A program made the position numbers and the translations under genes. Below are positions 3,430 to 33,498 of a stretch of DNA of 35,937 bases, piece after piece. The notes below the pieces were generated by a model. The model had not been told where the DNA came from, did not search any database, and was given only the letters and a program-made list of their open reading frames with translations. Source of the DNA: Pseudonocardiales bacterium (GTDB lineage Bacteria; Actinomycetota; Actinomycetes; Mycobacteriales; Pseudonocardiaceae); NCBI GenBank assembly GCA_019240665.1, contig JAFAXZ010000205.1:1-35937 (forward strand), read 5' to 3'. Positions within the stretch are counted from its first letter, which is position 1. Every line of letters starts with the position of its first letter.

Positions 3430-5511
3430 TCACACCTGGGTGAACGCGTGCTCCCAGGACTCGACAGAGGTGAGTTCTGGCACCGCCGCACGGTAGCGCT
3501 CCGCGGTGACGTGCCACTCGTTGACCAGACGTCGGTAGAGCGCGATCGTGCGGGCCAGCAAGGCTCGGAACTGCTGCGGATCCCGTTTGCGGAAGGCGAC
3601 ACCACTGCCATCTGCGTTGGAGACCGTGGCCGAATCCATCATGCCGAGCAGGAACCACCGAGCGTGACGAGCCGGTACGTTAATCTGAGGGCGCTCACGG
3701 GTCTGCGGTTGCGGTGAACGCAGGTGACGGGAGACCGTGCACAGCGCACGCTTGGCGATGGCGATGGGGTGCACCGGCGGGTCGAGCAGGGCCTCGATGC
3801 GCACCGGATCGAACAACGGCATGGGGAGTTGCTGAGCGGAGGAAAAAATCCGGGCGTCGTCGTACCCCTCGCGCAGTTTTCGGACGGCGGGCAGCGCGTC
3901 GCGCAGCGAAGCGAACAAGAGCTCCGGTCCGTCAAGGAAGTCTTCGATTGATTTGTGATGCAGCGCCACGGTCGAGTATTCCATCGCCATCAGATGCTTG
4001 AAAGCGTTACGAAGACCATCTTGCACAATCACCCGGCGGACGTCATAGGGGCTGTGCAACGCCAGGGTGATCAGCCGGTTCCGCAGGTGGAAATAGGCTG
4101 TCCAGTCGGTCGCGTCGTCCTTGTCTGTCCAGGGCATATGCCAGATCGCCGAGCCGGGCAGGGTGACGGTCGGAAAACCGCATTCGCCGGCCCGCAATGC
4201 GTATTCCGCATCGTCCCATTTGATGAACAACGGCAACGGTAGGCCGGTGCGTTCGAGCACCTCGCGGGGGAACAGGCACATCCACCAGCCATTGTAGGTG
4301 GAGTGGATGCGAGCGTGCAGCAATCTCTGCTCGCGCAACGACAGCTTGGCGAAATCGTGCTGGTAGACCGACCCGGGTGCCGGACGCCAGAAACTCGTCC
4401 GCAGATCCACGATCTCCCCCATGGCGTGCAGCTGGCTGCGAACCTGGAGATTCAGCATCTGTGCGCCGACGATGACCGGCGATGACGACGCGCTGGCGAA
4501 GGCGTGTGCGCGCAGCACGCTGTCCGGCTCCAGCCGGACGTCATCGTCCATCAGCATCACGTGCTCAACGCCGTTCGTGCGCAGTGCCTCCAGCATGCCC
4601 CGGGAGAATCCGCCTGAGCCGCCGAGGTTCTCCTGGTTGATCATCACCAGCCGGTCCCCGAGACGGGCGGCGACGTCGGCGAACCGCTGGTGATCGCGCA
4701 CCGTGACGCTGCCCTGATCGACCACGAAGACCTTCGCGACGACGTCGAGCACCGCCTGGTCCTCGGCCAGTGCGGCCAGTGCGGTGACGCAGTCCGCCGG
4801 GCGATTGAAGGTCGTGATCGCCACCGCCAGTGTGCGGACCGGCAGCGGCTCATCGACGATCCATGCGGCCTCGGTGATGGTCAGCGACTTCCGTTCGGTG
4901 GCGACGTCGAACCACACCCATCCACCGTCCTCGAACGGCGCGAGCGACTCCCGGAATTCCAGCTGCACCGGGTCGCCCCCGGTGTCGAGTTGCTTACCCT
5001 CCAGGTGCACGACGTCGCCGGTGGACTTGGAGCGGTAGAGGTCTACCCGCCCGGAGCCCCGCACGGTAAGCCGCAGCGCCACCTCCTCCACCCGGGTCCA
5101 GCGCTTCCAGTAACTGGCCGGGAAAGCGTTGAAGTAGGTGGCGAAGGAGAGCTGACAGGTGGGGGGCAGGGTCACCGTCGACCGGGACACGACTTCGGCG
5201 GTGCGCCCGTGCATGGTCTCTGGTTCGTCTAGGTACAGCGGACGCACCTCGGGGGGGTCGTCCGCCCGGGGCATGATCACGCGGTGCAGGACACGTCGCG
5301 GCACGACCACGCCGGCGGTCGGGCCGATCTGCAGCGAACTGACGTCCGACAGCTTGCTGTCCGCTGCATTACTGCGCGCCGCTTCTCTGCGGGCAGCCCG
5401 CTCGATTGCCGTTGGGGCTTCGGCCTTGTCAAGGGCCTGACCGTTGAGGGTCGGGCCGGCACTCTCACCCGCCACCCGGACCTCCGGACCGGCCGCTTCT
5501 TTCCCTGCCAC
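3430..5511 (-). CDS. GlfT2-like galactofuranosyltransferase (paralogue)
   Basis: This is a second GlfT2-family enzyme, 693 aa from the preferred GTG at 5511. That start follows GGAAGG with 7 nt spacing; a GTG at 5544 is possible but lacks a ribosome site. It shares the full domain plan of its neighbour: FATYFNAFPASYWKRWT, TTFNRPADC, NLGGSGG, MLMDDDVRLEPDS, FIKWDDAEYALR, AIWHMPWTDKDDATDW, plus the C-terminal block NVPARHARWFLLGMMDSATV typical of complete GlfT2. The N-terminus carries about 65 extra polar, Ala-rich residues before the conserved RRVLHRVIMPR start, absent in the gene at 1-1614. It follows hspR by 76 bp on the same strand, so read-through from the heat-shock operon is possible. 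Two copies may divide the work of galactan priming or linkage, or this copy may act on another acceptor (inference). Confidence 0.88.
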   Translation of the reverse strand: MAGKEAAGPEVRVAGESAGPTLNGQALDKAEAPTAIERAARREAARSNAADSKLSDVSSLQIGPTAGVVVPRRVLHRVIMPRADDPPEVRPLYLDEPETMHGRTAEVVSRSTVTLPPTCQLSFATYFNAFPASYWKRWTRVEEVALRLTVRGSGRVDLYRSKSTGDVVHLEGKQLDTGGDPVQLEFRESLAPFEDGGWVWFDVATERKSLTITEAAWIVDEPLPVRTLAVAITTFNRPADCVTALAALAEDQAVLDVVAKVFVVDQGSVTVRDHQRFADVAARLGDRLVMINQENLGGSGGFSRGMLEALRTNGVEHVMLMDDDVRLEPDSVLRAHAFASASSSPVIVGAQMLNLQVRSQLHAMGEIVDLRTSFWRPAPGSVYQHDFAKLSLREQRLLHARIHSTYNGWWMCLFPREVLERTGLPLPLFIKWDDAEYALRAGECGFPTVTLPGSAIWHMPWTDKDDATDWTAYFHLRNRLITLALHSPYDVRRVIVQDGLRNAFKHLMAMEYSTVALHHKSIEDFLDGPELLFASLRDALPAVRKLREGYDDARIFSSAQQLPMPLFDPVRIEALLDPPVHPIAIAKRALCTVSRHLRSPQPQTRERPQINVPARHARWFLLGMMDSATVSNADGSGVAFRKRDPQQFRALLARTIALYRRLVNEWHVTAERYRAAVPELTSVESWEHAFTQV

Positions 5512-9973: not shown

Positions 9974-9999
9974 GGGCCGCGGGAGTGTTCCCGCGGCCC
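9974..9999. promoter_or_regulatory. GC-rich hairpin in the dnaK / EtfD-like intergenic region
   Basis: A perfect 11-bp stem (GGGCCGCGGGA paired with TCCCGCGGCCC) with a 4-nt loop GTGT. It shares its last three bases with the larger palindrome at 9997-10042, so both cannot be fully paired at once. There is no T-run, and it sits between divergent genes, so a simple terminator role is doubtful. Confidence 0.7.
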
Positions 10000-10042
10000 G
10001 TGAGTGGCGATGCGACTCATAGCTCGCATCGCCACTCACGGG
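9997..10042. promoter_or_regulatory. 19-bp perfect inverted repeat upstream of the EtfD-like gene
   Basis: CCCGTGAGTGGCGATGCGA pairs perfectly with its complement at 10024-10042 around an 8-nt loop. It ends two bases before the proposed -10 hexamer (10044-10049) of the EtfD-like gene and so covers the place where a -35 element would lie. It is an operator or a dispersed intergenic palindrome; the sequence alone does not decide. Confidence 0.7.
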
Positions 10043-10043
10043 C

Positions 10044-16251: not shown

Positions 16252-16348
16252 GGAGAGCATGGTGAAGCCTGACCTGGTGGGCCGGATTCGAGCGGCACAC
16301 CGGGGGGAACGTCGCTATGCTGATCATCCGCGTAGCCTGTCCCAGTAC

Positions 16349-16406
16349 CCCTCGCCGAGGTACGCGCCCCGGGGGTGGCTCCTCGGGGCGCGTACCTCGG
16401 CGGGGG
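16349..16406. promoter_or_regulatory. Long inverted repeat upstream of the XRE/TPR regulator
   Basis: A perfect 17-bp stem (CCGAGGTACGCGCCCCG at 16355-16371 with its complement at 16384-16400) is extended by about six further pairs outward, with a 12-nt loop. A partial extra copy of the arm (CTACCTCGGCG) follows and runs into the regulator start at 16423. It could be an autoregulatory operator or a transcription barrier between the divergent cydA and the regulator. Confidence 0.65.
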
Positions 16407-16422
16407 GCTTCCTACCTCGGCG

Positions 16423-19132: not shown

Positions 19133-19586
19133 AACTTCTCCTCCACAGACTCCACTAGCTCCGACTCGGCCCCCTCGCGTCGTTGTCGAGCCGTTCCATC
19201 GGCACTGGTAGTAGGTATACCCAGCGACTTCTCTTTGTAACCCACCGGAAGTTGACCGTTCTTCCCTCGTTTACCGCGATCGCCATAGTCACCCTGGGTA
19301 CGTCGCGGGTCGCTACCGAGCGGCCACCCTCAGCAACCTGATCCGCCGTCACACCGTACGCCGAGCGAACCCCTCGTTGCACTGAGCTGACAGTGGGTGA
19401 GCACCGGCGTGCTCTGCGTCGGCACAGCTAGCTCATCAGCGGCTCGACCATCCACGCCAGCGCAGCAGTGCTGCACCCCACAGCGCCGCAACGAGCTCCT
19501 CCGGGGCGCTCACCGTCGCCAGGGCCACTCAGCGGAGCCGGCCTCGCCGGGTAGCGCACCGAATACTTCAGCCCCCTTGCGGCTAC

Positions 19587-19592
19587 TACCGT
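19587..19592 (+). promoter_or_regulatory. -10 hexamer of jetA (leaderless)
   Basis: TACCGT lies 6 nt before ATG 19599. The same string ACTACCGTGTGCGC recurs at 24064-24077 before the jetA'-'jetB scar, supporting its role as a conserved jet promoter element. Confidence 0.6.
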
Positions 19593-19598
19593 GTGCGC

Positions 19599-21161
19599 AT
19601 GGCGCGTTACCCGCGGTTACCCGTCGAGCTGTTCCGCTTCGCCACCACCGAGCGGGCGGAACTCAACACAGCGGTGCTCTACGCGTTCGGAGCGGCTAAC
19701 GAGCGGTTGGAGACCTGGCTGACCCTGGGCGATGTCGCCGCACGGCTCCAGACCGTCGGCTACTTCGCTCCGCTGACCGACGAGGACCTGATGCCGGTGC
19801 TCGACCAGCTGCGTGAATGGCAGCTCATCGACCGCACCCAGGACCACGCGGCGCACTACTCCACCGCCGAGGACTTCGAGCGCAACAATCTGCGTTATTC
19901 GCTGACCCGACGCGGTGAGGCCGCCCTGGAGGGCTGCTCCCGGGCAGCAGCCGTCCTGGAGGCCACCGGCGCGCTGCAGACAGCCGTGCTCGACGCCATC
20001 GCCGAACGCCTGACCGAGCTCGCCGCGATGCTGACCGACCACAGCGCCACCGACCGCCGGGTGTACAGCACACTGGCCGAACTCGAAGGTCACCTGGAAT
20101 CGCTGGTGGCCGGCGTCAAGCAGTTCAATGGCGAGCTGCAACGGCTGCTGCGCGACGACTCCGGCGCCCTGGACACCTTCCAGGAGGTCAAGCAGGCCAC
20201 CGTCGCATACCTGCAGGAGTTCGTCACCAACCTTGACCACCGGCAGCGCACCATCGCCGCCGCGGTCGCCAGCATCGAGCACCACGGCCTACCTGACCTG
20301 CAGGAACGGGCACTACGTGGCGCCGACCTGCCGGCCCTGCCGGGCACCGACCCGTCCAGGCCGTGGCTGGAGCAGCGGAGGGCGAAATGGGACGGGCTGC
20401 GCGCGTGGTTCCGGCCCGCCGACGGTAGCGCGCCGCGCGCTGCGGCTCTGCAAGACGTCGCCCGCCGCGCGATCGTGGCCCTGATGCGGGTGCTGGAGCG
20501 GCACACCGAGGCGCGTCGCCGGGCCTGCAGCGCGGCGGCCGACTTCCGCGCCTTGGCCCGCGCCTTCGCTGCCTGCCCCACCAGCACCGACGCGCATCAG
20601 CTGGCCGCGGCCGCGTTTGGGCTGTGGCCGGCCCGGCACACCCAGCTCGGCCTGGACGACGAGGATCTGGTGCCCGCCGCCACCGCCTGGGCCGACGCGC
20701 CGCGGGTGCCGGTCTCCCCGCACCTGCGCAGCCGCGGCCGGATCGAGCAGAACTCCCGCACCGCCACCGTCCGCGACGTCCACGAACTACGCCGCGCCCG
20801 CCAGCGCCGCGCCGCCCACGAGCGCGCCGAGCTGGAAGCCGCCTGGGGACGACTGTCCACCGCGGGTCCGGTGCGGCTGTCAAGTCTGTGCGCCCTGGAG
20901 CATCTGGGGATCCTGGAGCACGGGCGCTTCGAGCGGTTGCTCGAACTGCTCGGCCGAGCGCTGAGCGCGCCGCCCGATGTGACCGGCCACCGCCGGGGCA
21001 TGTCCACCGACGGCCGGGTGGAACTGGTGCTGCGAGCTCCCGCCGACGGATCTCGGGCCACTCTGCGCACCCGGAAAGGCGTCTTCAGCGGTCCGGACTA
21101 CATCGTCGACGTTCGGGTGCTGGGCTCGGAGTTGCCGACAGCCGCGGTAGGCGGGTCATGA
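19599..21161 (+). CDS. jetA: Wadjet type II JetA (TIGR02677 / DUF2397)
   Basis: This 520-aa protein belongs to the TIGR02677 family, the kleisin-like subunit of type II Wadjet, an SMC-related complex that recognises and cuts small circular DNA such as plasmids. The N-terminus ARYPRLPVELFRF followed by NTAVLYAFGAANERLETWLT and a winged-helix region is typical of the family. The centre is helical (VYSTLAELEGHLESLVAG) and the C-terminus has DGRVELVLRAPADG. ATG 19599 follows a leaderless-type promoter. Its stop overlaps the jetB start (ATGA), so the two are co-translated. Family call is by motif and by the flanking jetB, jetC and jetD. Confidence 0.92.
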   Translation: MARYPRLPVELFRFATTERAELNTAVLYAFGAANERLETWLTLGDVAARLQTVGYFAPLTDEDLMPVLDQLREWQLIDRTQDHAAHYSTAEDFERNNLRYSLTRRGEAALEGCSRAAAVLEATGALQTAVLDAIAERLTELAAMLTDHSATDRRVYSTLAELEGHLESLVAGVKQFNGELQRLLRDDSGALDTFQEVKQATVAYLQEFVTNLDHRQRTIAAAVASIEHHGLPDLQERALRGADLPALPGTDPSRPWLEQRRAKWDGLRAWFRPADGSAPRAAALQDVARRAIVALMRVLERHTEARRRACSAAADFRALARAFAACPTSTDAHQLAAAAFGLWPARHTQLGLDDEDLVPAATAWADAPRVPVSPHLRSRGRIEQNSRTATVRDVHELRRARQRRAAHERAELEAAWGRLSTAGPVRLSSLCALEHLGILEHGRFERLLELLGRALSAPPDVTGHRRGMSTDGRVELVLRAPADGSRATLRTRKGVFSGPDYIVDVRVLGSELPTAAVGGS

Positions 21162-22360
21162 GCGGCCTCGGGAGCCAGCTGGACCGGATCGAGGCCGAGG
21201 AGACCTCCCGAGCGATCCGGTTGCTGCTGGCCCACCCGCTGCTCACCGTTTCGGCTGACCCGAACGGGTTCGACCTGGTTCGCCGCCGCCGCGACGCGCT
21301 GGCCCGCTGGTTCGAAGAGCATTGCGGCTGGCGGCTGGTTGTCCAGGCCCGTGACGGTTACGCTCGGCTACTCAAGATCCGCCCCGAGATCGACGGCACC
21401 CGGCCGCTGCGCCGGGACCGCAGCACCCGCGCCCCCTTCGACCGTCGCCGCTACACGCTGCTGGCGATTGTCTGCGCTGAGCTGCTGGCCACCCCCGTCA
21501 CCACCATCGGCCTGCTCGCTGACCGGGTCGCGCACGCCACCGCGGCGGAACCGGGCATCGAGTCCTTCCAGACCGCCCGGCGCTCCGAGCGAGCCGCGTT
21601 CGTCGATGCCCTGAAGCTCCTGGAGCGGGCCGGCGCGCTGCGCGCCCTGGACGGCACCGCCGAGTCCTATCTGGACTCCGACACCGCGAAAGTGCTGTTC
21701 CAGGTGGACACGACTTTACTGCTGCGGTTGCTCGCCGCGCCCCAGGCACCGTCCACTGTCAACCTCGATGATCCGACTGTGCTGGCTCTGTTGACGAAGG
21801 AGCCGCGTTACGGGGCCGCACCGGCCGGAGGTGAGGTCTCCGACGCGCAGCGCAACCTGTGGCTGCGGCACAGCATCACCCGGGCGCTGCTCGACGACCC
21901 GGTGGTCTACCGCGACGAACTCACCGAGGCCCAGCTCGGTTACCTCGCCAGTCCCACGGGGCGGCGTCTGATCCGGCAGGCCGCCGAGCAGGCTGGGTTC
22001 GTCCTCGAGGAGCGGGCCGAGGGCTACCTGCTGGTCGATCCCGACGGGCTGGCGACCGACCAGCGTTTTCCCGACGACACGTCGCACCCGAAAATCGCGG
22101 CGCTGGTATTGCTCGATCATCTCGTGGCGGCAGGTACGCCAGTTGCCGACAATGAGCTGGTCCACCGCGCCGTCGCCCTGCTGGAACGATTCCCCAGCTG
22201 GGCGAAGACCTACCGCTCCGAGGAGGGGGCGACCCGGCTCGCCGCCGACGCGGTGGACGTGCTGTGCGCCTTCAAGCTCGCCGCCCGCGAGGAGGGCAGG
22301 GTGCGCGCTCGGCCTGCCGCCGCCCGGTTCGCCGTCGCTACCCCGGTGGTCCAGGAATGA
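21158..22360 (+). CDS. jetB: Wadjet type II JetB (TIGR02678 / DUF2398)
   Basis: This 400-aa TIGR02678 protein is the KITE-like (MukE-type) winged-helix partner of the JetC ATPase. Family features include RAIRLLLAHPLLT, DALARWFEEHCGWRLVVQ, RPFDRRRYTLLAIVCAELL-like spacing (RAPFDRRRYTLLAIVCAELL here) and PKIAALVLLDHLV. The end ARFAVATPVVQE overlaps an ATG (ATGA), the arrangement expected for direct coupling to jetC. Here the coupled frame is only a 16-codon remnant and jetC itself is 1.8 kb away. A near-identical copy of its last 13 codons sits immediately before jetC. Confidence 0.92.
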   Translation: MSGLGSQLDRIEAEETSRAIRLLLAHPLLTVSADPNGFDLVRRRRDALARWFEEHCGWRLVVQARDGYARLLKIRPEIDGTRPLRRDRSTRAPFDRRRYTLLAIVCAELLATPVTTIGLLADRVAHATAAEPGIESFQTARRSERAAFVDALKLLERAGALRALDGTAESYLDSDTAKVLFQVDTTLLLRLLAAPQAPSTVNLDDPTVLALLTKEPRYGAAPAGGEVSDAQRNLWLRHSITRALLDDPVVYRDELTEAQLGYLASPTGRRLIRQAAEQAGFVLEERAEGYLLVDPDGLATDQRFPDDTSHPKIAALVLLDHLVAAGTPVADNELVHRAVALLERFPSWAKTYRSEEGATRLAADAVDVLCAFKLAAREEGRVRARPAAARFAVATPVVQE

Positions 22361-22407
22361 CCGCCGACGTACCACGGCATTCACCCCAGCTCCTTTCTGG
22401 GAGATGA
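22357..22407 (+). pseudogene. Remnant resembling the start of jetC after jetB
   Basis: An ATG overlaps the jetB stop and opens a 16-codon frame, MTADVPRHSPQLLSGR, then stop. The real JetC begins MTITDLPQIHSGRW; start position, MT, the PQ and SGR line up. This suggests jetC once followed jetB here and was deleted. From 22408 to 22492 nothing further is recognisable. The match is short, so confidence is moderate. Confidence 0.5.
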
Positions 22408-22492
22408 ACCGTCAGGGCGCGTCACGACGACTGCCGCCGCGCGCCTTCTGCCGCCATCAGCTCCATTCGGCACCCTGCGCTGCTCACCCTTT

Positions 22493-23266
22493 TCAAGGCA
22501 CGTGATCAGGGCTATCCCTCGACGTCAGTGCGGTCAGTGTGCCGTGCTCGTGACGGCTCGCATCATTCTCGTCGTCCTCGATTCTGATACCCAGGGCGGC
22601 GGCGAGCGTGTACGACAGCGTCACGAGGTCGTGGCTGCGCACGATAGCGCCCTGCCAGCTCGTCACACCGCCGATATCAACGAGCACGCAATGAGAGAAT
22701 CGAGCACCCTCCATATTCGCCTGAGAGAACTGTGCACCGGTCAGATCACAGCCGATGAACTGGGCACCACTGAGGTCGGACTTGATGAAGTCAGTGCCGG
22801 TGAGGTTGCACCGTTCAAACAGCACCGCCACGAAGTCGGTGAAGCGGAAGGAAGAAAGATCCAGCCGCGACTCGGTAAACCGCGCATCGCGGAGCAATCC
22901 GTCAGTCCAGTGAAAACCGGTCATCCGCAGTACGGACAGCTCAGCCCGCACTAACGACGACTTCTCGGCTCGCAGGTTGGCGAGGTTGCTGTTCTCAAAA
23001 ACACAGTCGGTGAAGACTGCTCGGCCGAGCGTCGTGCCGCTGAGGTCTACGTCCTTGAACCGGCACTGCATGAATTCCACTGACTCGGCTGACCGTCCGG
23101 AAAGGTCGATGTCGGCGAAGCTGAGGCTCCGGTGCGTCGCGTCGCTTTCCACATCGTGAGCGGGCAGATCCGCAAAATCAAGAGACGTCGGCTGGAGAGG
23201 GTTCCTCGGCAGCCTGGCTGGAGCGCTTACACCACCGCCGCGACGTGCAGACGAACGACGAGACAT
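22493..23266 (-). CDS. Pentapeptide-repeat protein
   Basis: This 257-aa protein starts at ATG 23266 behind AAGGTGAG. A basic N-terminus (MSRRSSARRGG) is followed from about residue 50 to 215 by tandem pentapeptide repeats of the A(D/N)LXX type, such as FKDVDLSGTTLGRAVFTDC and FIKSDLSGAQFIGCDLTGAQ. These fold as a right-handed square beta-helix. An acidic C-terminus (GIRIEDDENDASRHE) closes the protein. Some family members (MfpA, Qnr) mimic DNA and bind gyrase; most have no known role. It lies antisense between jetB and jetC, so it is cargo within the Wadjet locus. Function here is unknown. Confidence 0.85.
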   Translation of the reverse strand: MSRRSSARRGGGVSAPARLPRNPLQPTSLDFADLPAHDVESDATHRSLSFADIDLSGRSAESVEFMQCRFKDVDLSGTTLGRAVFTDCVFENSNLANLRAEKSSLVRAELSVLRMTGFHWTDGLLRDARFTESRLDLSSFRFTDFVAVLFERCNLTGTDFIKSDLSGAQFIGCDLTGAQFSQANMEGARFSHCVLVDIGGVTSWQGAIVRSHDLVTLSYTLAAALGIRIEDDENDASRHEHGTLTALTSRDSPDHVP

Positions 23267-23276
23267 GATGCTCACC

Positions 23277-23834
23277 TTACGCCTTACAGCATACGCCGGC
23301 CGCGACGGCGTGGGCAATGCCGGTGCGCGGTTTTCTCTGCCAGGTCGCCAAATGGCTCATCCCGCACAACACGATCGCACCCAGTTCGATGTTCTCGGCT
23401 TCGTGTGCCAGCGTACGGGCATCCTCGTAGTAATATTCCGCGCTGGTGAAATCGTGCAGGTCAAACGAGAGCCACCCAGCTTGACGTGAGGCATCGCTCA
23501 GAACCGAGAGCAGCCGCTGCCGAAGATCCGCCGGGCATTCGGGCACCAGGGCACGAGCCAGATTGCGCTGGGCGAGCACGGTGTCGAGCACGCCTTGCGG
23601 GCCGAGCGTGTCGTCCTGCCGCTCGCAGCGCCACAGCACGGCTTTGATGTGTTCGATAGTCTGCGCGTCGACCCGGCCGGGGTTGCTGAGCACCGCAGCG
23701 ACGCGCGCGTGTTCGTCCGGATCCAGGGAGTGGCCGACCGACGCCGCCGTGGTCGCCCAGCTCAGGGTGCGGAGCGTGTCGTGACGCTTCACGGTGTGAG
23801 CCCACCTCGTGAGGAACTGAACGAGCCGAGGGTG
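23277..23834 (-). pseudogene. Truncated XRE-type regulator (HTH missing, C-terminus cut)
   Basis: About 185 codons encode the middle of a known actinomycete regulator family: LRTLSWATTAASVGHSLDPD, EHARVAAVLSNPGRVDAQTI, VLWRCERQDDTLGPQGVLDT, FDLHDFTSAEYYYEDARTLA. The N-terminal helix-turn-helix expected before this is absent; upstream the same frame is Pro-rich non-homologous sequence (a possible ATG at 23897). The C-terminus stops at RTGIAHAVAAGVCCKA, where relatives continue into further repeats. It is therefore truncated at both ends. It lies 10 bp upstream of the pentapeptide gene on the same strand and may once have controlled it. Confidence 0.7.
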
Positions 23835-24065
23835 AGCGAGGTCACGCCCGCGTGCCGTGGGCGGCAGGGGGTCAGGCGTCCCGGCGCTACTCACCATGGG
23901 TGGGTGGGTGGCCGGTGGTGAGCAAGCACCGGTCGGCGGGGGTGAGATGTTCCAGATCGTCGGCGTCGATGAGCTGGGCAGGGGTGCACCCACTGCGGAC
24001 ACCCACCGTGGCGCCGGATCGGGGTCGACCCGGCGGGGCCGCTCCGCATTGTCGGGGGTGGTCAC

Positions 24066-24071
24066 TACCGT
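24066..24071 (+). promoter_or_regulatory. Relict jetA-type -10 hexamer, now upstream of jetC
   Basis: TACCGT within ACTACCGTGTGCGC is identical in context to the jetA promoter at 19585-19598. Here it precedes the scar ORF's GTG (24080) by 8 nt and is the nearest candidate promoter for jetC. Confidence 0.5.
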
Positions 24072-24079
24072 GTGCGCCC

Positions 24080-24154
24080 GTGGCGCGCTATCCCCAGCTA
24101 CCCCTCGAGCTGTCCGCCCGGTTTGCCGTCGCTACCCCGGTGGTGCAGGAATGA
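24080..24154 (+). pseudogene. Chimeric jetA'-'jetB deletion scar
   Basis: A 24-codon frame reads ARYPQLPLELS then ARFAVATPVVQE after its GTG. The first part matches the JetA start (ARYPRLPVELF) and the second is identical to the JetB end (ARFAVATPVVQE). The join falls at an RFA shared by both, so a microhomology deletion of about 2.7 kb is likely. The 3' 40 bp differ from the jetB end at only two positions, while the 5' part is about 80% like jetA. The stop overlaps the jetC ATG (ATGA), so this mini-ORF may now start ribosomes for jetC. Confidence 0.85.
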
Positions 24155-27100
24155 CGATTACGGATTTACCCCAGATCCACAGCGGACGGTGGCGCCCGCA
24201 CCGCGCGGGCATCGTCAACGTCTGGCGCTACCTCGACGAGGTGTTCGGCTTCCATCATGGTCGGCTGCTGCTGCGCGGCGCGAACGGCACCGGCAAGTCC
24301 AAGGCGCTGGAGCTGCTGCTGCCTTACCTGCTCGACGCCAACCTGCGGGCACACCGGCTGTCCACCTTCGGCAGTGACCGGTCCATGCACTGGAACCTGA
24401 TGGGCGATGGCTACCCGGGCGCCACCCGGGTCGGCTACGTGTGGTTGGAGTTCGAACGCACCGATGCCGCGGGCACGCGGCAGTTCTTCACCTGTGGGGC
24501 GCGACTGCAGGCCAGCACCTCCACGACCAGCGTCTCAGCCACCTACTTCACCACCACCCTGCGGGTAGGGCAGCCGCAGGGGCTGCACCTGCTGCCCGGC
24601 GGGCACCCGCTGAGTCGGGCTGAGCTCACCGCCGCGATGGGTAGCCAGGGGCGGGTGTTCGATCAGGCCACGGAGGAGTACCGGACGACGCTGCGAACGA
24701 CGCTATTCAACGGCGTACCGCGGGAGAAGTACGAGGCGCTGATCGTCGCGCTGCTGCAGCTGCGCACGCCGAAACTGTCCGAGCATCTCGACCCCGAGGA
24801 GCTGTCCGGGCTGCTGTCCCGCTCCCTGCCACCAGTCGACGCCGACGACGTCGCCGAGATCGCAGAGGGCTTCGAGCGCCTCGATCGACACGTCGAGCAG
24901 CTGCACGCCTTGGAGGAAGAAGCGAGCGCCGCACGGCGGCTCGCCGACGTCGCCCGCCGCTACGCCCGCCGGGTGCTGCGCGCCGCCGCCGACCGGTTGA
25001 CCAGGTCCACCAGCGCGATGGACAGCGTCGCCCGCCGGGCCCGCGGCAGCGCCACCGCGCTGGCCGACACCGAGGACGAGCTCACCGCCGTGCGCACCGC
25101 CGACGGCGAACTGGCCGGCGAGCACCGCGACCTGACTGCCCGGGCCGAGGGCATCCAGCTCCTGGACGCCTACCAGGAGGGCAAGCAATTGCCCACATTG
25201 CGGACCGACGCAGGCGATGCACGCCGCCGAGCCGAGGGCGCCGCCCGCACCGCGGCGGATGCGGCGCGGATCGCCGGGCAGGACGCCGCAGCGGCCCGAA
25301 CGATGCAGGATGAAGCCGCGGCGGCTACCGAGACGGCCCGGCGGTCCGGGGATCTCGCCGCGGATGCCGCCGAGCTCGCTGGCCGTGCCGCGCTGGTCAC
25401 CCAGCTCGCCGGCACCGAGGATCTGCGCCGGGCCCGAGCGCTCCTCGAGGCGGGCCTGGCCGCCCGGCGCGGTGACATCGAGACGATGCAGCGGGCGCTG
25501 GCCGCGCATGCCGACGCGGTCCGCGACCACGCGGGTGCCGAGCAGCGCCTGGAGACCGCCCGGGAGGAGCACGCCGCCGCACAGCACACCTCCCGGGCAG
25601 CCGCGGCCGCCCACGCCGACGCGGTGACCGCGCTGGCCGAGGAGCTGACCAGCTGGGCCGCGCAGTGCCCGCTGCTGAACCCGAGCCCGCCGCTGAACCC
25701 GAGCCCGCCACCGAACCCGAGCCCGCCACCGAACCCGAGCCCGCCACCGAACCTGAGCCCGCTGCCGAACCTGCCGGCGCTGGCCGAGCTGGCCGCTGAC
25801 GAGCCCGCGGTCACCTCCGCGGTGAATGCCGCCGCCACCGCCGTCCGGGAGGATCTCACCGCACGCCGCACCCGGCTGCAGGCCGACCGGGACACGGTGC
25901 AGGCGCAGCGGGACGGGATCCAGGCCGATCGGGACGCGGTGGCCGCCCAGCGCGACGTGCCCCCACCAGCGCCCTATACCCGTGAGGCCTCCCGAGACGA
26001 CCGCGCCGGGGCGCCACTGTGGCGTGTGGTGGCCTTCACCGACGACCTACCCGAGCGGGACCGAGCCGGTATCGAGGCTGCCTTGGAGGCATCCGGGCTG
26101 CTCGACGCCTGGATACAGCCCGACGGGACGCTGGACGGCGAGCTGCGCGACACCTTCGCCGACGGCACGCTCGGCACCCCGGCGCCCGGCGGGTCACTGC
26201 GCGATGTGCTCGTCGCCGAACCCGATTCCCCCGTCGCCGCGGACCGGATCGAGCGGCTGCTCACCGCTGTCGCGCACGGCGGTGACGAGGCGTTCGACCA
26301 CCCGGCGGCGGTCGGTGCCGACGGCCGCTGGCGGCTGGGTGTCACGCACGGCCGGATGACCAAACCGGAACCCGCCTACATCGGCGCGGCCGCCCGGGAA
26401 CGCGCCCGCACCCGCCGGCTCGCTGAGCTTGACGAGCAGCTCCACGCGCTGGATACCCAGCTCAGTGGGCTGGACCAGGCGCTGGAGGAGGTCGAGCAGC
26501 GCCGGGCCCAGCTCGCCGCCGAGCTCGCCGCCCGTCCCAGCCACGAGCCGGTCCGCGCCGCGGGCCGCGCCTGGGATCAGGCGCAAGCCCGCGAAGCGGC
26601 CCGCGCTGACGCCGTCGCTGGGGCGGTGGCCGAGACCGAGCAGCTCGGGAAGCAGGTCCGGGTCCGCGACCGGGCGGTACGCCAGCGCGCCGCCGAGCTG
26701 TCCCTGCCGGCCACTCCCGAGGCGCTCCAGGACTATCGTGATGCGCTCGGCGCATTCGGCACCGCCGCCCGCGGCTGGTTGGACGACCGGGCGAGCGCCA
26801 CCGGGCTCACCGAGCGTGCGGCCCTGGTGACCGAACAGGCTGACCGCTCCGCCACCCAGGCGCAGGCAGCCGCGACCCAGGCCCACGAGCTGGCCGACAC
26901 CGCGGCTCGCCTGCGGTCCCGGTTGGACGCGGTCGAGGCCTCGGTCGGGGTCGCGTTCCAGCAGCTCGACGCCCAGCTGCGGCAGATCACCGACCGGATC
27001 GACGTGATCGAGGGCGAGCGATCCACGCTGCGGAACCGCGAGCTGGACCTGCGTGAGCGCATCGGTGGCCTGCGCGAGCAACGCGACGCCGACGCACGTG

Positions 27101-28284
27101 AGTCCGTGGCCACGGTGGCCGAGCGCGACGCCGCCGCGGAGACGTTCCGGCGGTTGGCCACCGGCACGCTCGGCGCCGACACCCAGCTCGACCTCGACGT
27201 CGGCGACGGCGTCACCGCCGCACTGGCCGCCGCCCGGGTGGTCGCTCAGCGGGTCAGCGAACCCTTCGAGCAGCGTCACTTGCGCGACGCCCAGGGCCGG
27301 CTGGATGAAGCCGTGCACGAGGTGCGGGAGCGTCTGGCCGGCCGCGCTGACTTGCAGACCGAGGCCGGTGACGACGCGATGGTGCTCACCGCCACCGTCA
27401 ACGGACGGCCGCTGGGCGCCGCGGCGCTGCACCGGCTGCTGGCCGACGAGCACGCCGCAGCCGCCGAGGCACTCACCGCCGAAGAGCGCGACCTGTTCGA
27501 TCGCACCCTGACCGGTGACACCCGCCGGCACGTCGCAGATCGGATCCGCACCGCTGACGAGCTGGTCCGCGGGATGAACCGGCGGCTGGGCAAGGTGCGC
27601 ACCGTGTCGAAGGTACGGGTACAGCTGGCCTGGCAGGTCGACCCCGAGCTGCCCCCGGGCACCCGCCAGGCTCGTGACCTGCTGCTGCGCGACCCCGCCA
27701 CGCTGAGCGCTGAGGAGCGCGACGCGCTGCACCGCTTCTTCCGGGAACGCATCGCCGAGGCCCGTGACGCCCACGCCGCGGCAAGCTGGCAGGCCCAGCT
27801 CACCCAGGTCTTCGACTACACCGCCTGGCACCGATTCGTCGTCACCGTCGACCTCGGCGAGGGCACCGGCCCCCGGCAGGTCACCCGCAAGCTGCACGGC
27901 ACCCTGTCCGGCGGGGAAAAGGCGATCGTGCTGCACTTACCGCTGTTCGCCGCGCTCGCAGCGCATTACGAGGCTGCCCCCACCGCGCCCCGGCTGGTGC
28001 TGCTCGACGAGGTGTTCGTCGGCATCGACCCCTCCAACCGCGGTCAGCTCCTTGATCTGCTCCGCGGCTTCGACCTCGACGCGGTGCTGACCTCTGATCA
28101 CGAATGGTGCACCTACGCCGAGCTGGACGGCATCGCGATCCACCAGCTGCTCACCGACGACGTGGACAAGGCCGTGACCACCGCCCGGTTCATCTGGACC
28201 GGCACCGCGCTGGAACAGGCTGATCTGCCCGAACCCCACCCCGAACCCGTCCCGGTCACTGCAGGGACCCTATTCGATCCGTGA
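24151..28284 (+). CDS. jetC: Wadjet type II JetC, SMC-like ATPase (TIGR02680)
   Basis: This 1377-aa MukB/SMC-like motor of the Wadjet complex extrudes DNA loops to sense small circles. Walker A is GANGTGKS (43-50) within RGANGTGKSKALELLLPYLL. Two long coiled-coil arms rich in Ala, Arg and Glu fill about residues 230-500 and 590-1150. The ABC signature is LSGGEK (1252-1257), and Walker B is LVLLDE (1282-1287), followed by VFVGIDPSNRGQLLD. A Pro-rich hexapeptide repeat (508-541) interrupts the first arm. ATG 24151 overlaps the stop of the scar ORF and has no own Shine-Dalgarno, so it depends on coupling. The open frame extends far upstream of this ATG but that part is not homologous. The frame is intact, so the ATPase is probably functional. 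Confidence 0.94.
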   Translation: MTITDLPQIHSGRWRPHRAGIVNVWRYLDEVFGFHHGRLLLRGANGTGKSKALELLLPYLLDANLRAHRLSTFGSDRSMHWNLMGDGYPGATRVGYVWLEFERTDAAGTRQFFTCGARLQASTSTTSVSATYFTTTLRVGQPQGLHLLPGGHPLSRAELTAAMGSQGRVFDQATEEYRTTLRTTLFNGVPREKYEALIVALLQLRTPKLSEHLDPEELSGLLSRSLPPVDADDVAEIAEGFERLDRHVEQLHALEEEASAARRLADVARRYARRVLRAAADRLTRSTSAMDSVARRARGSATALADTEDELTAVRTADGELAGEHRDLTARAEGIQLLDAYQEGKQLPTLRTDAGDARRRAEGAARTAADAARIAGQDAAAARTMQDEAAAATETARRSGDLAADAAELAGRAALVTQLAGTEDLRRARALLEAGLAARRGDIETMQRALAAHADAVRDHAGAEQRLETAREEHAAAQHTSRAAAAAHADAVTALAEELTSWAAQCPLLNPSPPLNPSPPPNPSPPPNPSPPPNLSPLPNLPALAELAADEPAVTSAVNAAATAVREDLTARRTRLQADRDTVQAQRDGIQADRDAVAAQRDVPPPAPYTREASRDDRAGAPLWRVVAFTDDLPERDRAGIEAALEASGLLDAWIQPDGTLDGELRDTFADGTLGTPAPGGSLRDVLVAEPDSPVAADRIERLLTAVAHGGDEAFDHPAAVGADGRWRLGVTHGRMTKPEPAYIGAAARERARTRRLAELDEQLHALDTQLSGLDQALEEVEQRRAQLAAELAARPSHEPVRAAGRAWDQAQAREAARADAVAGAVAETEQLGKQVRVRDRAVRQRAAELSLPATPEALQDYRDALGAFGTAARGWLDDRASATGLTERAALVTEQADRSATQAQAAATQAHELADTAARLRSRLDAVEASVGVAFQQLDAQLRQITDRIDVIEGERSTLRNRELDLRERIGGLREQRDADARESVATVAERDAAAETFRRLATGTLGADTQLDLDVGDGVTAALAAARVVAQRVSEPFEQRHLRDAQGRLDEAVHEVRERLAGRADLQTEAGDDAMVLTATVNGRPLGAAALHRLLADEHAAAAEALTAEERDLFDRTLTGDTRRHVADRIRTADELVRGMNRRLGKVRTVSKVRVQLAWQVDPELPPGTRQARDLLLRDPATLSAEERDALHRFFRERIAEARDAHAAASWQAQLTQVFDYTAWHRFVVTVDLGEGTGPRQVTRKLHGTLSGGEKAIVLHLPLFAALAAHYEAAPTAPRLVLLDEVFVGIDPSNRGQLLDLLRGFDLDAVLTSDHEWCTYAELDGIAIHQLLTDDVDKAVTTARFIWTGTALEQADLPEPHPEPVPVTAGTLFDP
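25675..25776 (+). repeat. 18-bp tandem repeat in jetC (NPSPPP/L)
   Basis: Five full 18-bp units plus a partial one encode NPSPPL, NPSPPP, NPSPPP, NPSPPP, NLSPLP-like hexapeptides. The two central units are identical. The frame is kept, and the repeat makes a flexible Pro-rich linker in the coiled-coil arm. Unit number may vary between strains. Confidence 0.9.
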
Positions 28285-28287
28285 GTG

Positions 28288-28304
28288 ACGATACGAACTA
28301 TCGT
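28288..28304. promoter_or_regulatory. Small inverted repeat after jetC
   Basis: ACGATA, 5 nt, TATCGT lies 4 bp after the jetC stop and 85 bp before the next gene. It is AT-richer than its surroundings and could be a regulator site or part of a promoter. Confidence 0.35.
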
Positions 28305-28388
28305 TGACCGCTCATGGAGGCACCGGGCAGCGACGGCGCGTGGCTCCCGGTTCCCGTCCCGACGCCGCTCGACAGGAGGATCACGCCC

Positions 28389-28781
28389 ATGCCGGATCCC
28401 GACGATGGCTTCGAAGCCCGCTTGGTCGTCCTGGAGCGCGAGATTGCTCGGCTGCGTGAGCAGACCATCCTCGCCAACTCAGATGCCGCTGCCGCCCGGG
28501 TAGATGCTGCCGCTGCCCGCGTGCTGGCGGCCGGTGCCGACCGGGACGTGTCGGAGGTTCGCGCTGAGCTGCGTGCCCACATTCAGGTCCTCAATGCCTT
28601 GCGGGAGACCCAGCTGGAGCAGGTGCGGAAGATGGCCGAGATGCACGCCGAGATCCACGCCGAGATGCACGAGGGCTTCACCGAGATGCGCGGGGGTTTC
28701 GCCACGCAGGCCACCGGTATGGCTCAGATCACCGAGCTACTGACGAAGATCGCAGAGCCGCCAGCGTCATCACTGAACTGA
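28389..28781 (+). CDS. Small coiled-coil protein of unknown function
   Basis: This 130-aa protein has ATG 28389 with AGGAGG 9 nt upstream. Nearly the whole length is helical: FEARLVVLEREIARLREQ begins a coiled coil, continued by DAAAARVDAAAARVLAAG and a His/Met/Glu repeat (MAEMHAEIHAEMHEGFTEM). No membrane segment or catalytic motif is seen. It is the first gene after jetC on the same strand and could be transcribed with it. I do not recognise a named family; an accessory scaffold for the neighbouring complex is possible but unsupported. Confidence 0.7.
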   Translation: MPDPDDGFEARLVVLEREIARLREQTILANSDAAAARVDAAAARVLAAGADRDVSEVRAELRAHIQVLNALRETQLEQVRKMAEMHAEIHAEMHEGFTEMRGGFATQATGMAQITELLTKIAEPPASSLN

Positions 28782-28952
28782 CCCCGCTGGATGCGCGCCA
28801 GTCTGCATGTTCCGCAGAACCGCGGTGGCTGGTCCGCAGGCGGGTGACCGTCGGTAGTGCCCAGGCCGGTAGGGTGCCATGGTCATCGATGACCCGCACG
28901 GCGTCGGAGATGACGACTCGCGGGAGAACGGCGACACCGGTGGGGGGAGTCG

Positions 28953-29342
28953 GTGGCCAGGGTCTTCATCAGCTATGCCAGCCAGGACCGGGAGTGTGCT
29001 GCCCGGCCACAGCGGAGGCGTCAACTCGGTGGCCTTCAGCCGGGACGGGCACACCCTGGCCACCGCCAGCCTCGATACCACGGTGCGGTTGTGGGATGTC
29101 CGCGACCTCCGCAGACCCAGGCTGTGGGGTATCCTCACCGGCCACGCCAGCGCCGTCTTCTCGGTGGCCTTCAGCCCGGACGGGCACACTCTGGCCACCG
29201 GCAGCGCCGACAACACCGCGCGATTGTGGGAAACCGACGTCGACCGTGTCGCCAAGCGGATCTGTCGCATCACGCCCACCATCCCCCCAGCGAGTGGGAC
29301 CACTATTTCCCCGGCTTGCCGTACCGGCCTCCCTGTGTATGA
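28953..29342 (+). pseudogene. Collapsed TIR-WD40 gene (internal deletion and frameshift)
   Basis: GTG 28953, after GGGGGGAG, opens with a TIR-domain start ([13 protein letters not shown]). At about 28995 the sequence jumps, in another frame, to two WD40 repeats: [20 protein letters not shown] with VRLWDVRD, and [20 protein letters not shown] with [16 protein letters not shown]. The family C-terminus [17 protein letters not shown] is back in the first frame after a missing C in a six-C run near 29283-29288. The TIR remainder, any central NTPase and most WD40 repeats are gone. Intact relatives are large TIR-WD40 defence or signalling proteins. Confidence 0.82.
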
Positions 29343-29423
29343 GCTACCCGGGGGGCGGGGTGGATACCTCACCCGGCGGCGGTCATGGGGGCGGCACCGC
29401 CGGGCGAGGCGGACTGGGGTGGG

Positions 29424-29840
29424 TTAGGGCGGGGGCTCGTCGTCGTCCCAGGGGGTCGTGCTGCTGGTGGCGTCACGGGTAGTTTTAGTGATCTTCACCG
29501 TGGCGGCTCTGAGTGAGACGCCGACCTCGGTGGCGTCGACTTCGTACACGTAGCGCTTCACACCACCGGTGGTGCCCCACTCGCGTTGCCGCAGCACGCC
29601 GGTGACCAGCACCCGAGCGCCTTGCATGAGGGATTCCGCGACGTTCTCGGCGGCCTGGCGCCGGATCGAGCATGGCAGCAACGTCGGAGCCTTGTCCACC
29701 CATTTCCCGGTGGCCGGGTCAACGCTGCGGTCGTTGGTCACCACGGTGAAGTTCGTGACCACGGCACCGGCGGGGGTCACGCACAGTTCGGGGTCGGCGA
29801 CCAGGACGCCAGCGAGAGTGATCTCGGGTAGCCCAGTCAT
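29424..29840 (-). CDS. ssb: Single-stranded DNA-binding protein (short, accessory type)
   Basis: This 138-aa OB-fold protein has the SSB N-terminus [20 protein letters not shown], the conserved [11 protein letters not shown] and the core [22 protein letters not shown]. The linker is very short and the acidic tip ends WDDDEPPP rather than the usual DDxxPF, so the partner-recruiting Phe is missing. Size and tail fit an accessory SSB, often carried by mobile elements, rather than the chromosomal replication protein. ATG 29840 has only a weak upstream GAGAGGA. Confidence 0.9.
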
Positions 29841-32280: not shown

Positions 32281-33498
32281 ATGGCTGACCCGGCGGCGTT
32301 CGACCGTCCCGAGCTCGCTGCCCTGTGGCGTGAACTGCGCCGCCGGTTCGAGGCCGCCGGGGACGGCGAGGTGCGCACCGTCCGGCTGTCCGGGCTGGAC
32401 CCGGCGCAGCGCGCCGCGCTGGCCGACCTGCTCGGGTGGGCTCGGCTGCCCGGCGAGCAGACAACGGTGACCGTTGCCCGGGTTGACGACATCCTCCGCC
32501 GCGGGTGCGGGCTCGGCGTGCGAGAGCTCCTGGTGCGCCTGCACGGCCCGCTGCGGGACCGACCCGCCGAACGCGTGGCGATCGCCACCCAACGCGCCGA
32601 GCTGTGGGCGGAACTGGAGAACCACCCGCTGGTGGTGGCGCTTCCCGCGCTGCGCGGTTGGGTGGACGGCTTGCGTCGCGGCGGGCTGATCGGGGGTTCC
32701 GTCACGGCCTGCCGCGAGCATCTTCGCGCCACACTGGCCGTCCTGGCGGAGCTGCCCGCGGCCGGCGAGCCGTTGCCGGTGCTGGCCGAGCGCGTGCTGG
32801 GGGATCCGCACGCGCTGGACGAGGGCACCCGGTGCGCAGGCAGCGTCCTGCGCGCGTTGGCGGCGCTGCGCGACGAACCGCCACCGGTCGACGCCGCCGG
32901 CCGCCGCGACCTCTGGGCGATGCACGGGGTCACCGGTGACGAGTTATCCACGACCGTACTGGTGGCGGGCTTCACGTCCGCGGATCCGGGTGCGCTGGCC
33001 AGCACGCTGGCCGCCTGGGCCAGCGCCGGGCAGGCGGCGGTCGTGACGCTCGCGCAGCTTCGCGCCGCACCCCCGTTGCGTGGCGTGACACCGGTGCACG
33101 TGGTGGAGAATCCGTCCATCCTCGCCATGGCGGTGCACCGCTTCGGGGCCGGGTGCCCACCGCTGGTGTGCACCGCGGGGTGGCCGAACACCGCCGCCGT
33201 GCTCCTGCTGCGTAGCCTGCGCACCGCCGGTGCCGTGCTGCACTACCACGGGGATCTCGACGGTGAAGGCCTGCGGATCGCCGCCTACCTCGTCTCTCGG
33301 ACCGGGGCGCTGCCCTGGCGGATGTCCACCACCGACTACCGCGCCGCCGTCACCGACCACGGACCCGCGCCCGGCCGGCTCACCGACGTCCCCTGGGATC
33401 CGCACCTCGCCGCGGCGCTGGCCGAGCGCGGCGTTGCCGTCCCCGAAGAGCGAGTCGCCCCGGTACTGCTTGATGACCTGGCCACGCATCTGCGCTGA
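32281..33498 (+). CDS. jetD: Wadjet type II JetD nuclease (TIGR02679 / DUF2399)
   Basis: This 405-aa TIGR02679 protein is the Toprim-type nuclease that cleaves the plasmid once JetABC has wrapped it. An N-terminal DUF3323-like region is followed by the DUF2399 Toprim fold. The conserved acidic motifs are visible: HVVENPSILA (catalytic Glu) and HYHGDLDGEGLRIAAYL (DxDxxG). ATG 32281 has GGAGGGAG at good spacing, so it has its own ribosome site. It is on the jetABC strand but 4 kb downstream of jetC, separated by unrelated genes, so it needs its own promoter. The frame is intact and the catalytic residues are present. Confidence 0.92.
   Translation: MADPAAFDRPELAALWRELRRRFEAAGDGEVRTVRLSGLDPAQRAALADLLGWARLPGEQTTVTVARVDDILRRGCGLGVRELLVRLHGPLRDRPAERVAIATQRAELWAELENHPLVVALPALRGWVDGLRRGGLIGGSVTACREHLRATLAVLAELPAAGEPLPVLAERVLGDPHALDEGTRCAGSVLRALAALRDEPPPVDAAGRRDLWAMHGVTGDELSTTVLVAGFTSADPGALASTLAAWASAGQAAVVTLAQLRAAPPLRGVTPVHVVENPSILAMAVHRFGAGCPPLVCTAGWPNTAAVLLLRSLRTAGAVLHYHGDLDGEGLRIAAYLVSRTGALPWRMSTTDYRAAVTDHGPAPGRLTDVPWDPHLAAALAERGVAVPEERVAPVLLDDLATHLR

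What the first reader, a model, noticed from the sequence alone, without database searches (positions are those of the whole stretch)
24064..24154. jetA'-'jetB deletion scar acting as a mini-cistron for jetC
Directly before jetC is a 24-codon ORF whose first part matches the JetA N-terminus (ARYPQLPLEL against ARYPRLPVEL), with the same upstream ACTACCGTGTGCGC, and whose last 12 codons equal the JetB C-terminus. The join is at an RFA present in both genes. The stop overlaps the jetC ATG. The deletion has therefore kept the jetA promoter, a start codon and the jetB-jetC coupling signal, a compact way to keep jetC expressed after losing the genes in front. The jetA-like half is more diverged than the jetB-like half, so the donor was probably a related, not identical, operon.
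Basis: partly seen in the sequence, partly recalled or inferred. Interest (0 to 1): 0.85.

Follow-up and report, generated by a model that had tools for sequence, protein, structure and literature searches.

The report
Fused mini-gene leader before jetC
In an uncultured actinobacterium, a duplicated anti-plasmid (Wadjet) operon seems to have lost complementary parts of its two copies, leaving a 24-codon stub made of the start of jetA and the end of jetB that probably still supplies the promoter and ribosome entry for jetC.

Summary
The ORF 24080-24154 joins a jetA start (24064-24117; 82% to 19585-19637) to a jetB end (24114-24155; 40 of 42 bases); its TGA overlaps the jetC ATG. The join lies at a shared CCGC, just before the RFA. 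A sister genome, G007, has jetA-jetB-jetC contiguous behind the same upstream sequence. Gene order A-B-C also holds in 20 of 20 other operons read, though a diverged one in G001 has jetD between jetB and jetC. A probable jetC 5' remnant follows the intact jetB, so two copies look complementary: left keeps jetA and jetB, right keeps jetC. The stub also carries TTGTCGGGG-8nt-TACCGT, close to the published PafBC-type DNA-damage promoter consensus, 8 nt before its GTG; jetA itself lacks the TTGTC half. A 4-base jetB/jetC overlap is possible in 14 of 20 relatives. G003 has another jetA'-'jetB fusion. Expression and coupling are inferred, not shown.

The parts
19599..21161 (+). jetA (Wadjet type II, TIGR02677/DUF2397), full length; left copy
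   Evidence: (439 bits, cut-off 166), JetA2
19587..19592 (+). TACCGT, -10-like, 6 nt before the jetA ATG; the TTGTC half of the promoter-like motif is absent here
21158..22360 (+). jetB (TIGR02678/DUF2398), full length; ATGA overlap with jetA
22357..22393 (+). probable remnant of a jetC 5' end behind the intact jetB: ATGA overlap, then at 22374-22393 ACGGCATTCACCCCAGCTCC against ACGG-ATTTACCCCAGATCC of jetC
   Evidence: 3 of 5000 shuffles and 26 of about 5000 random window 50-mers score as high
22493..23266 (-). pentapeptide-repeat protein, antisense, between the two operon parts
   Evidence: on the ORF 22493-23317
23277..23897 (-). NsdA-family TPR-like regulator, antisense; only profile positions 76-267 of 432 matched, so probably truncated
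   Evidence: on the longer ORF 23277-24065
24049..24071 (+). promoter-like TTGTCGGGG-N8-TACCGT (RecA-NDp/PafBC-type consensus, 8 of 9 plus TAnnnT)
   Evidence: consensus from PMC5656591
24064..24117 (+). jetA-start-derived half: upstream sequence and first 12 or so codons
24080..24154 (+). fused mini-ORF jetA'-'jetB; GTG start 8 nt after the -10-like hexamer
24114..24155 (+). jetB-end-derived half, with the ATGA that overlaps the jetC start
24151..28284 (+). jetC (TIGR02680, SMC-like), full length; Walker A, LSGGE and Walker B present; right copy
32281..33498 (+). jetD (TIGR02679; DUF3323 and DUF2399), a separate unit about 4 kb downstream

Best explanation
A type II Wadjet operon (jetA-jetB-jetC contiguous in the nearest relative and in most read) had its head duplicated, and the copies lost complementary parts. 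The left copy kept jetA and jetB and only the first bases of jetC, and lost the upstream half of the promoter. The right copy kept the promoter and jetC, but its jetA-jetB was cut by an in-frame, microhomology-type deletion to a 24-codon stub. Two antisense genes now lie between the copies, so read-through from jetA to jetC is unlikely. The stub probably works as jetC's expression leader: transcription starts at or near its GTG (8 nt after the -10-like TACCGT, so a nearly leaderless mRNA), ribosomes translate 24 codons, stop at the TGA and re-initiate at the overlapping jetC ATG. Shown: the fusion, G007's contiguous order, full-length jetA-D, the promoter-like motif, the overlap. Inferred: order of events, leaderless start, coupling, a working system.
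For: Fusion and homologies. G007 has promoter-jetA-jetB-jetC contiguous with the same upstream sequence. jetA, jetB, jetC in this order side by side in 20 of 20 other operons read (20 of the 32 other full-length JetC rows over cut-off). A jetC start candidate overlapping the jetB stop by NTGA in 14 of 20. Probable jetC remnant behind the left jetB. TACCGT lies 6-8 nt before the start codon in the four jetA heads compared: window jetA 6, stub 8, G007 7, G003 7. Motif at 24049-24071; G007 and G003 match 7 of 9. All four Jet proteins over cut-off and nearly full length. dN/dS 0.05-0.33 in seven segments against G007. Another jetA'-'jetB fusion in G003, at other jetA bases. Overlapping gene pairs were strictly coupled in 13 of 14 cases tested in Haloferax and E. 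coli (PMC6728339, abstract).
Against: No transcript or ribosome data for this MAG. The A-B-C order is not universal: a diverged Wadjet in the same genus (G001:C62) has its jetD match between jetB and jetC. The jetC-remnant match is short: 26 of about 5000 random 50-mers of the window do as well. The promoter scan of 22300-24200 found no sigma-70-type site, though that consensus does not cover this promoter type. The motif has G for T at one of nine positions; 38 of 44 other jetA upstreams lack it, and a loose pattern drawn from the site itself is not rare in the window (2 found at up to 3 mismatches, 22 of 100 shuffles reach 2). A GGTGGTG 5 nt before the jetC ATG (24139-24145) could serve as a weak ribosome site without any coupling. 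No terminator-like site lies between jetB and the antisense block; the two found are inside the pentapeptide gene. No pentapeptide or NsdA-like match was found in the 20 kb around G007's jetABC (L043), so a plain tandem duplication of one ancestral locus is not demonstrated. G007 is itself decaying, which inflates dN/dS.
Confidence: 0.58

Rival explanations
1. Neutral scar (a rival on function). The promoter upstream of the stub drives jetC, but translation of the stub is irrelevant: the jetB tail is kept only because it holds jetC's own ribosome-binding region, and jetC starts de novo.
For: The jetB half is better conserved (40 of 42) than the jetA half (82%). Several relatives carry a GGAGG-like sequence in the jetB tail before jetC, G007 has GGAGGA three bases before its jetC ATG, and the stub has GGTGGTG 5 nt before.
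Against: The window has no well-spaced GGAGG-like site: AGGA (24147-24150) abuts the ATG. Both fusions seen (window, G003) are in frame with the jetA start, though chance alone gives 1 in 9.
Confidence: 0.32
2. Single-crossover insertion (a rival on origin). A DNA carrying the antisense genes plus a jetA promoter-start stub recombined with the resident operon at the jetB end/jetC start, so the block from 22.36 to 24.11 kb is an insert flanked by a short direct repeat.
For: The block is flanked by 42-base direct repeats at 95%. G003 has a comparable arrangement: two copies of the jetA head flank an antisense ATPase that matches the candidate defence family PDC-S27.
Against: The two reading frames scanned in the block match no integrase or transposase; the homology is short; no free-standing donor was seen.
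Confidence: 0.2
3. Assembly chimera of two strains' Wadjet loci.
For: The contig belongs to a draft genome in 372 contigs, 87% complete.
Against: The longest exact stretch shared by the two jetB ends is 20 bases. G003 independently has a jetA'-'jetB join.
Confidence: 0.04
4. The 24-residue peptide is itself functional, for example by binding JetC or another Jet subunit.
For: It joins the two ends of JetC's partner proteins.
Against: The JetA part has diverged (R to Q, V to L, loss of LF), and most of it lies before the family domain, which starts at residue 10. The exact jetB-end pattern was found in only two genome contigs records, both of this genus; a wider search for such peptides was not made.
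Confidence: 0.03

Closest known systems
Wadjet type II (JetABCD; EptABCD of Mycobacterium smegmatis)
   Same: All four proteins match the type II models over nearly full length.
   Different: The genes are split into jetAB, jetC and jetD units by other genes, and jetC follows a fused jetA'-'jetB stub. That EptABCD is type II is recalled; the passages seen (PMC10586767) name it only as a Wadjet.
Translational coupling by termination-reinitiation at ATGA overlaps (PMC6728339, abstract and outline seen)
   Same: Stop and start overlap as ATGA in the co-directed pair stub-jetC.
   Different: The upstream cistron is a 24-codon fusion product, not a gene; coupling not measured; the paper's tests were in Haloferax and E. 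coli.
RecA-NDp/PafBC-dependent DNA-damage promoters of actinobacteria (PMC5656591 and PMC6789036, passages seen)
   Same: tTGTCRgtg-8nt-TannnT matched at 8 of 9 positions with the exact spacing and TAnnnT.
   Different: Position 8 is G, not T; no binding or induction data; no link to Wadjet seen in the searches made.
Tandem Wadjet II operons in G016:C48
   Same: Two operons head to tail on one strand, jetABCD then jetABC.
   Different: The two are diverged (JetA 31% and 45% identical to the window's) and their genes are in order, not complementary remnants; no second jetD match in the 20 kb read.

Membership tests
Wadjet type II system | JetA2, JetB2, JetC2 and JetD2 homologues together | tested here: met
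   439, 318, 1035 and 321 bits to TIGR02677, TIGR02678, TIGR02680 and TIGR02679, all over cut-off
Wadjet type II system | genes in one contiguous operon | tested here: not met
   1.8 kb between jetB and jetC, 4.0 kb between jetC and jetD; jetA-jetB-jetC side by side in 20 of 20 operons read, jetD between jetB and jetC in G001
Wadjet type II system | anti-plasmid activity | not testable with these tools
   needs an experiment
RecA-NDp (PafBC-type) promoter | consensus tTGTCRgtg-8nt-TannnT | tested here: met
   24049-24071, 8 of 9 plus TAnnnT with exact spacing; consensus read in PMC5656591
RecA-NDp (PafBC-type) promoter | PafBC present; motif bound or damage-induced | tested here: inconclusive
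   pafA-type matches in 11 of 11 genus genomes, 9 over cut-off; pafB and pafC were not searched as families, and the three frames read behind pafA settle nothing; binding not testable
Termination-reinitiation coupled gene pair | overlapping stop and start on one strand | tested here: met
   ATGA at 24151-24154; NTGA possible in 14 of 20 relatives
Termination-reinitiation coupled gene pair | downstream translation depends on upstream translation | not testable with these tools
   needs a reporter

The most novel reading that the evidence does not exclude
Type II Wadjet in this clade was ancestrally a DNA-damage-induced operon with a leaderless jetA start. After operon-head duplication and complementary loss, only the jetC (SMC motor) unit kept the damage promoter, through a deletion-born mini-cistron, so motor and partner subunits are now controlled separately.
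Probability: 0.2. Interest if true: 0.7.

Novelty: new variant of a known kind. Interest (0 to 1): 0.45.

Why it matters
If true it shows, in one contig beside a sister genome with the genes still in order, how a multi-subunit defence operon can be broken apart without losing a gene: duplication, complementary loss and a deletion-born cistron that keeps promoter, start and coupling. It also points to a testable link between type II Wadjet and the actinobacterial DNA-damage promoter, since similar motifs precede jetA in 6 of 44 other operons. I found no report of that link: in the library searched one paper holds both 'Wadjet' and 'PafBC', and the passages shown from it do not connect them.

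Tried and rejected
A dispersed repeat or attachment site: the jetB-end pattern GGTTYGCCGTYGCTACCCCGGTG with up to 3 mismatches gives 6 places in 4 of 11 genus genomes; the four exact ones are all in Wadjet loci. In genome contigs the exact pattern was found only in the G003 and G007 contigs (the tool may leave out the window's own genome), and a shorter form not at all in viral contigs. So it does not look like a mobile repeat.

A common promoter repeat: TGTCRGGGNNGGNCACTACCGTG with up to 2 mismatches gives 6 places in 4 of 11 genomes; the four exact ones are jetA heads or their copies, the other two have 2 mismatches; the reversed control gives 1.

A foreign donor operon: similar dS over the parts of jetA, jetB and jetC compared with G007 gives no support.

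A jetD 5' remnant behind jetC, as a parallel to the jetC remnant behind jetB: alignment of 28200-28400 with the region around the jetD start gave only a 19-base match of score 18.

Papers: the listings gave nothing on a split or duplicated Wadjet II operon; only titles and abstract openings were seen there. Motif counting: one search used a wrong slice for L106 and counted one locus twice (L083 and L116); one search corrected L106 (no match), leaving 44 distinct upstreams. Dropped before that count: the window's own L109 and four partial JetA rows (L111-L114).

Full report
What was checked. The window is the whole of contig C196 in a draft genome (3.4 Mb, 372 contigs, 87% complete). The contigs G003:C45 and G007:C32 of the same genus have the lengths of, and were matched at the same pattern as, two named records, Pseudonocardiales MAGs (JAFAPC010000102 and JAFAUB010000036). 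All four Wadjet type II genes are present and nearly full length against their models: jetA 19599-21161, jetB 21158-22360, jetC 24151-28284, jetD 32281-33498. JetC has Walker A, the LSGGE signature and Walker B.

The finding itself. The frame from GTG 24080 reads MARYPQLPLELSARFAVATPVVQE*, and the TGA overlaps the jetC ATG. The two matches overlap by CCGC (24114-24117), which is where the join lies; the RFA that follows is jetB's. That the frame is open is no evidence, since it is open from 23852; the evidence is the homology.

The ancestral order. In the sister genome G007, jetA, jetB and jetC are contiguous, and the sequence before its jetA matches 24050-24117 at 83% over 69 columns. G007's operon is itself decaying: the aligned pieces are separated by deletions and frame changes, and a stop lies early in jetC. 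Of the 32 other full-length JetC rows over the cut-off I read 20 (the best-scoring 21 less G045; 16 genomes) with 5 kb around the jetC start: jetA, jetB and jetC lie side by side in 20 of 20. A jetC start candidate overlapping the jetB stop by NTGA exists in 14 of 20; the others have a candidate at 0, +12, +15, +71 and +58/+70, and one has none. Against this, a diverged Wadjet in the same genus, G001:C62 (JetA 30%, JetB 33%), has its jetD match between jetB and jetC. So the joined order is very common and is that of the nearest relative, but it is not universal.

Two worn copies. Behind the intact jetB the ATGA overlap is present (22357-22360), and at 22374-22393 a stretch resembles the start of jetC (ACGGCATTCACCCCAGCTCC against ACGG-ATTTACCCCAGATCC). 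Of 5000 shuffles 3 score as high; of about 5000 random 50-mers of the window 26 do. The match is modest on its own, but it lies in the place and orientation where jetC is expected. If accepted, the left copy is jetA-jetB-(jetC start) and the right copy (jetA start)-(jetB end)-jetC: complementary loss. Between them lie a pentapeptide-repeat gene and an apparently truncated NsdA-type gene, both antisense. Homology to G007 upstream of jetA stops at 19580 for the left copy and at 24050 for the right one, so the right copy has kept more of the old promoter region.

Was there a foreign donor? dS between window and G007 is 0.16-0.25 in each of seven ungapped segments of jetA, jetB and jetC, and dN/dS is 0.05-0.33 (G007's decay inflates the latter; the first 140 or so codons and one middle part of jetC and some gene ends were not in the segments). 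The two parts therefore have a similar depth of divergence. The jetB half of the stub shares VVQE and the absence of an extra codon with the window's own jetB against G007. The jetA half has more changes than the jetB half; relaxed constraint on the jetA codons, and retained constraint on the jetC start region, would explain that.

The promoter. The sequence 24049-24071, TTGTCGGGG-8nt-TACCGT, matches tTGTCRgtg-8nt-TannnT, the LexA-independent DNA-damage promoter consensus, at 8 of 9 positions plus the hexamer (consensus in passages of PMC5656591; PafBC acts through it, passages of PMC6789036). G007 and G003 match at 7 of 9; the window's jetA lacks the TTGTC half. Of 44 distinct jetA upstream regions from other genomes, 6 hold a match of at least 7 of 9 with TAnnnT and 38 do not; two of the six are in one genome (G031), and one of the six is 9 of 9 (L077). 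Controls: first-order shuffles 0.13% per region and the reverse strand 0 of 45; background in other fetched DNA, mostly coding, 3 in 516,926 strand-bases. A harsher yardstick: G000 has 22 sites at one mismatch or fewer, the stub's among them, against 7 for the reversed control. Taking each as the promoter of one of a supposed 3400 genes, five of 44 at about that stringency has a chance of 1e-5. Within the window alone the site is not rare if the pattern is loose. TACCGT lies 6-8 nt before the start codon at the four jetA heads compared, which suggests a nearly leaderless mRNA (inference). The general promoter scan found nothing here, but its consensus is of another type. pafA-type matches occur in 11 of 11 genus genomes, 9 over the cut-off; pafB and pafC were not searched as families.

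Another fusion. G003 has, from C45:40931 on the minus strand, a jetA start of 25 or so codons joined in frame to the jetB end (VAHYSRLPVELLRFATTERAELHTAAWFAVATPVIRE) and running on in one open frame of 531 codons that has no Pfam or PADLOC match. A second copy of the same jetA promoter and start lies at 42584 on the same strand, and between the two copies is an antisense ATPase that matches the candidate defence family PDC-S27 (E=9e-22) and falls short of Pfam's cut-off for ATPase_2. The jetB side of the join lies at the same GCCGCC stretch as in the window; the jetA side differs. This may be a second event, or one shared fusion followed by a further deletion in the window's lineage; two sequences cannot decide.

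How it most likely works. The antisense block makes it unlikely that jetC is read from the jetA promoter. The stub retains promoter, start codon and the ATGA overlap. Before jetC the window has no well-spaced GGAGG-like site: AGGA abuts the ATG, and GGTGGTG lies 5 nt before it. I therefore favour translation of the stub and re-initiation at jetC. Overlapping pairs were strictly coupled in 13 of 14 cases tested in Haloferax and E. coli (PMC6728339, abstract). A stub that is merely the untranslated home of jetC's ribosome site is the main rival. None of this is measured.

Verdict. A real and well-supported fusion; a plausible, testable expression role; ordinary evolutionary steps (duplication, deletion) acting on a known defence system. 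The possible link between type II Wadjet and a DNA-damage promoter is the part most worth an experiment.

Noticed in passing
L077, L081, L089, L090, L091, L093 (upstream of jetA): RecA-NDp/PafBC-like motif upstream of jetA in 6 of 44 other Wadjet II operons, 9 of 9 in L077: a possible DNA-damage control of Wadjet II.
   Followed up: partly
L047 (G003:C45), contig positions 39336-42584: Two copies of the jetA promoter-start flank an antisense PDC-S27-like ATPase; the second copy is a jetA'-'jetB fusion running into another frame.
   Followed up: partly
L048 (G016:C48:30001-50000): Two diverged Wadjet II operons head to tail on one strand, jetABCD then jetABC.
   Followed up: partly
L044 (G001:C62, 8014 bases): A diverged Wadjet with jetD between jetB and jetC; the contig begins in the C-terminal part of jetC and ends inside jetC, as a tandem or circular unit would give, but its ends share no overlap.
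   Followed up: partly
window 25676-25770: A proline-rich short repeat (NPSPP units) in JetC; 25694-25770 has no counterpart in the G007 alignment.
   Followed up: no
window 28879-29427 against L046 5833-11204: A WD40-like frame with two similar repeat units in the window, against many matches of the same units in G003.
   Followed up: no
window 22455-22536 against L046 349-431: An 83-column stretch at the 3' end of the pentapeptide gene is 85.5% identical to G003 sequence that lies upstream of its jetC fragment.
   Followed up: no
window 205-1098 and 4048-4938: A diverged direct repeat of about 0.9 kb (67% identical); the genes there were not examined.
   Followed up: no
window 16348-16407 and 9996-10043: Near-palindromic stretches of 60 and 48 bases (83% and 88% in the self-comparison).
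   Followed up: no
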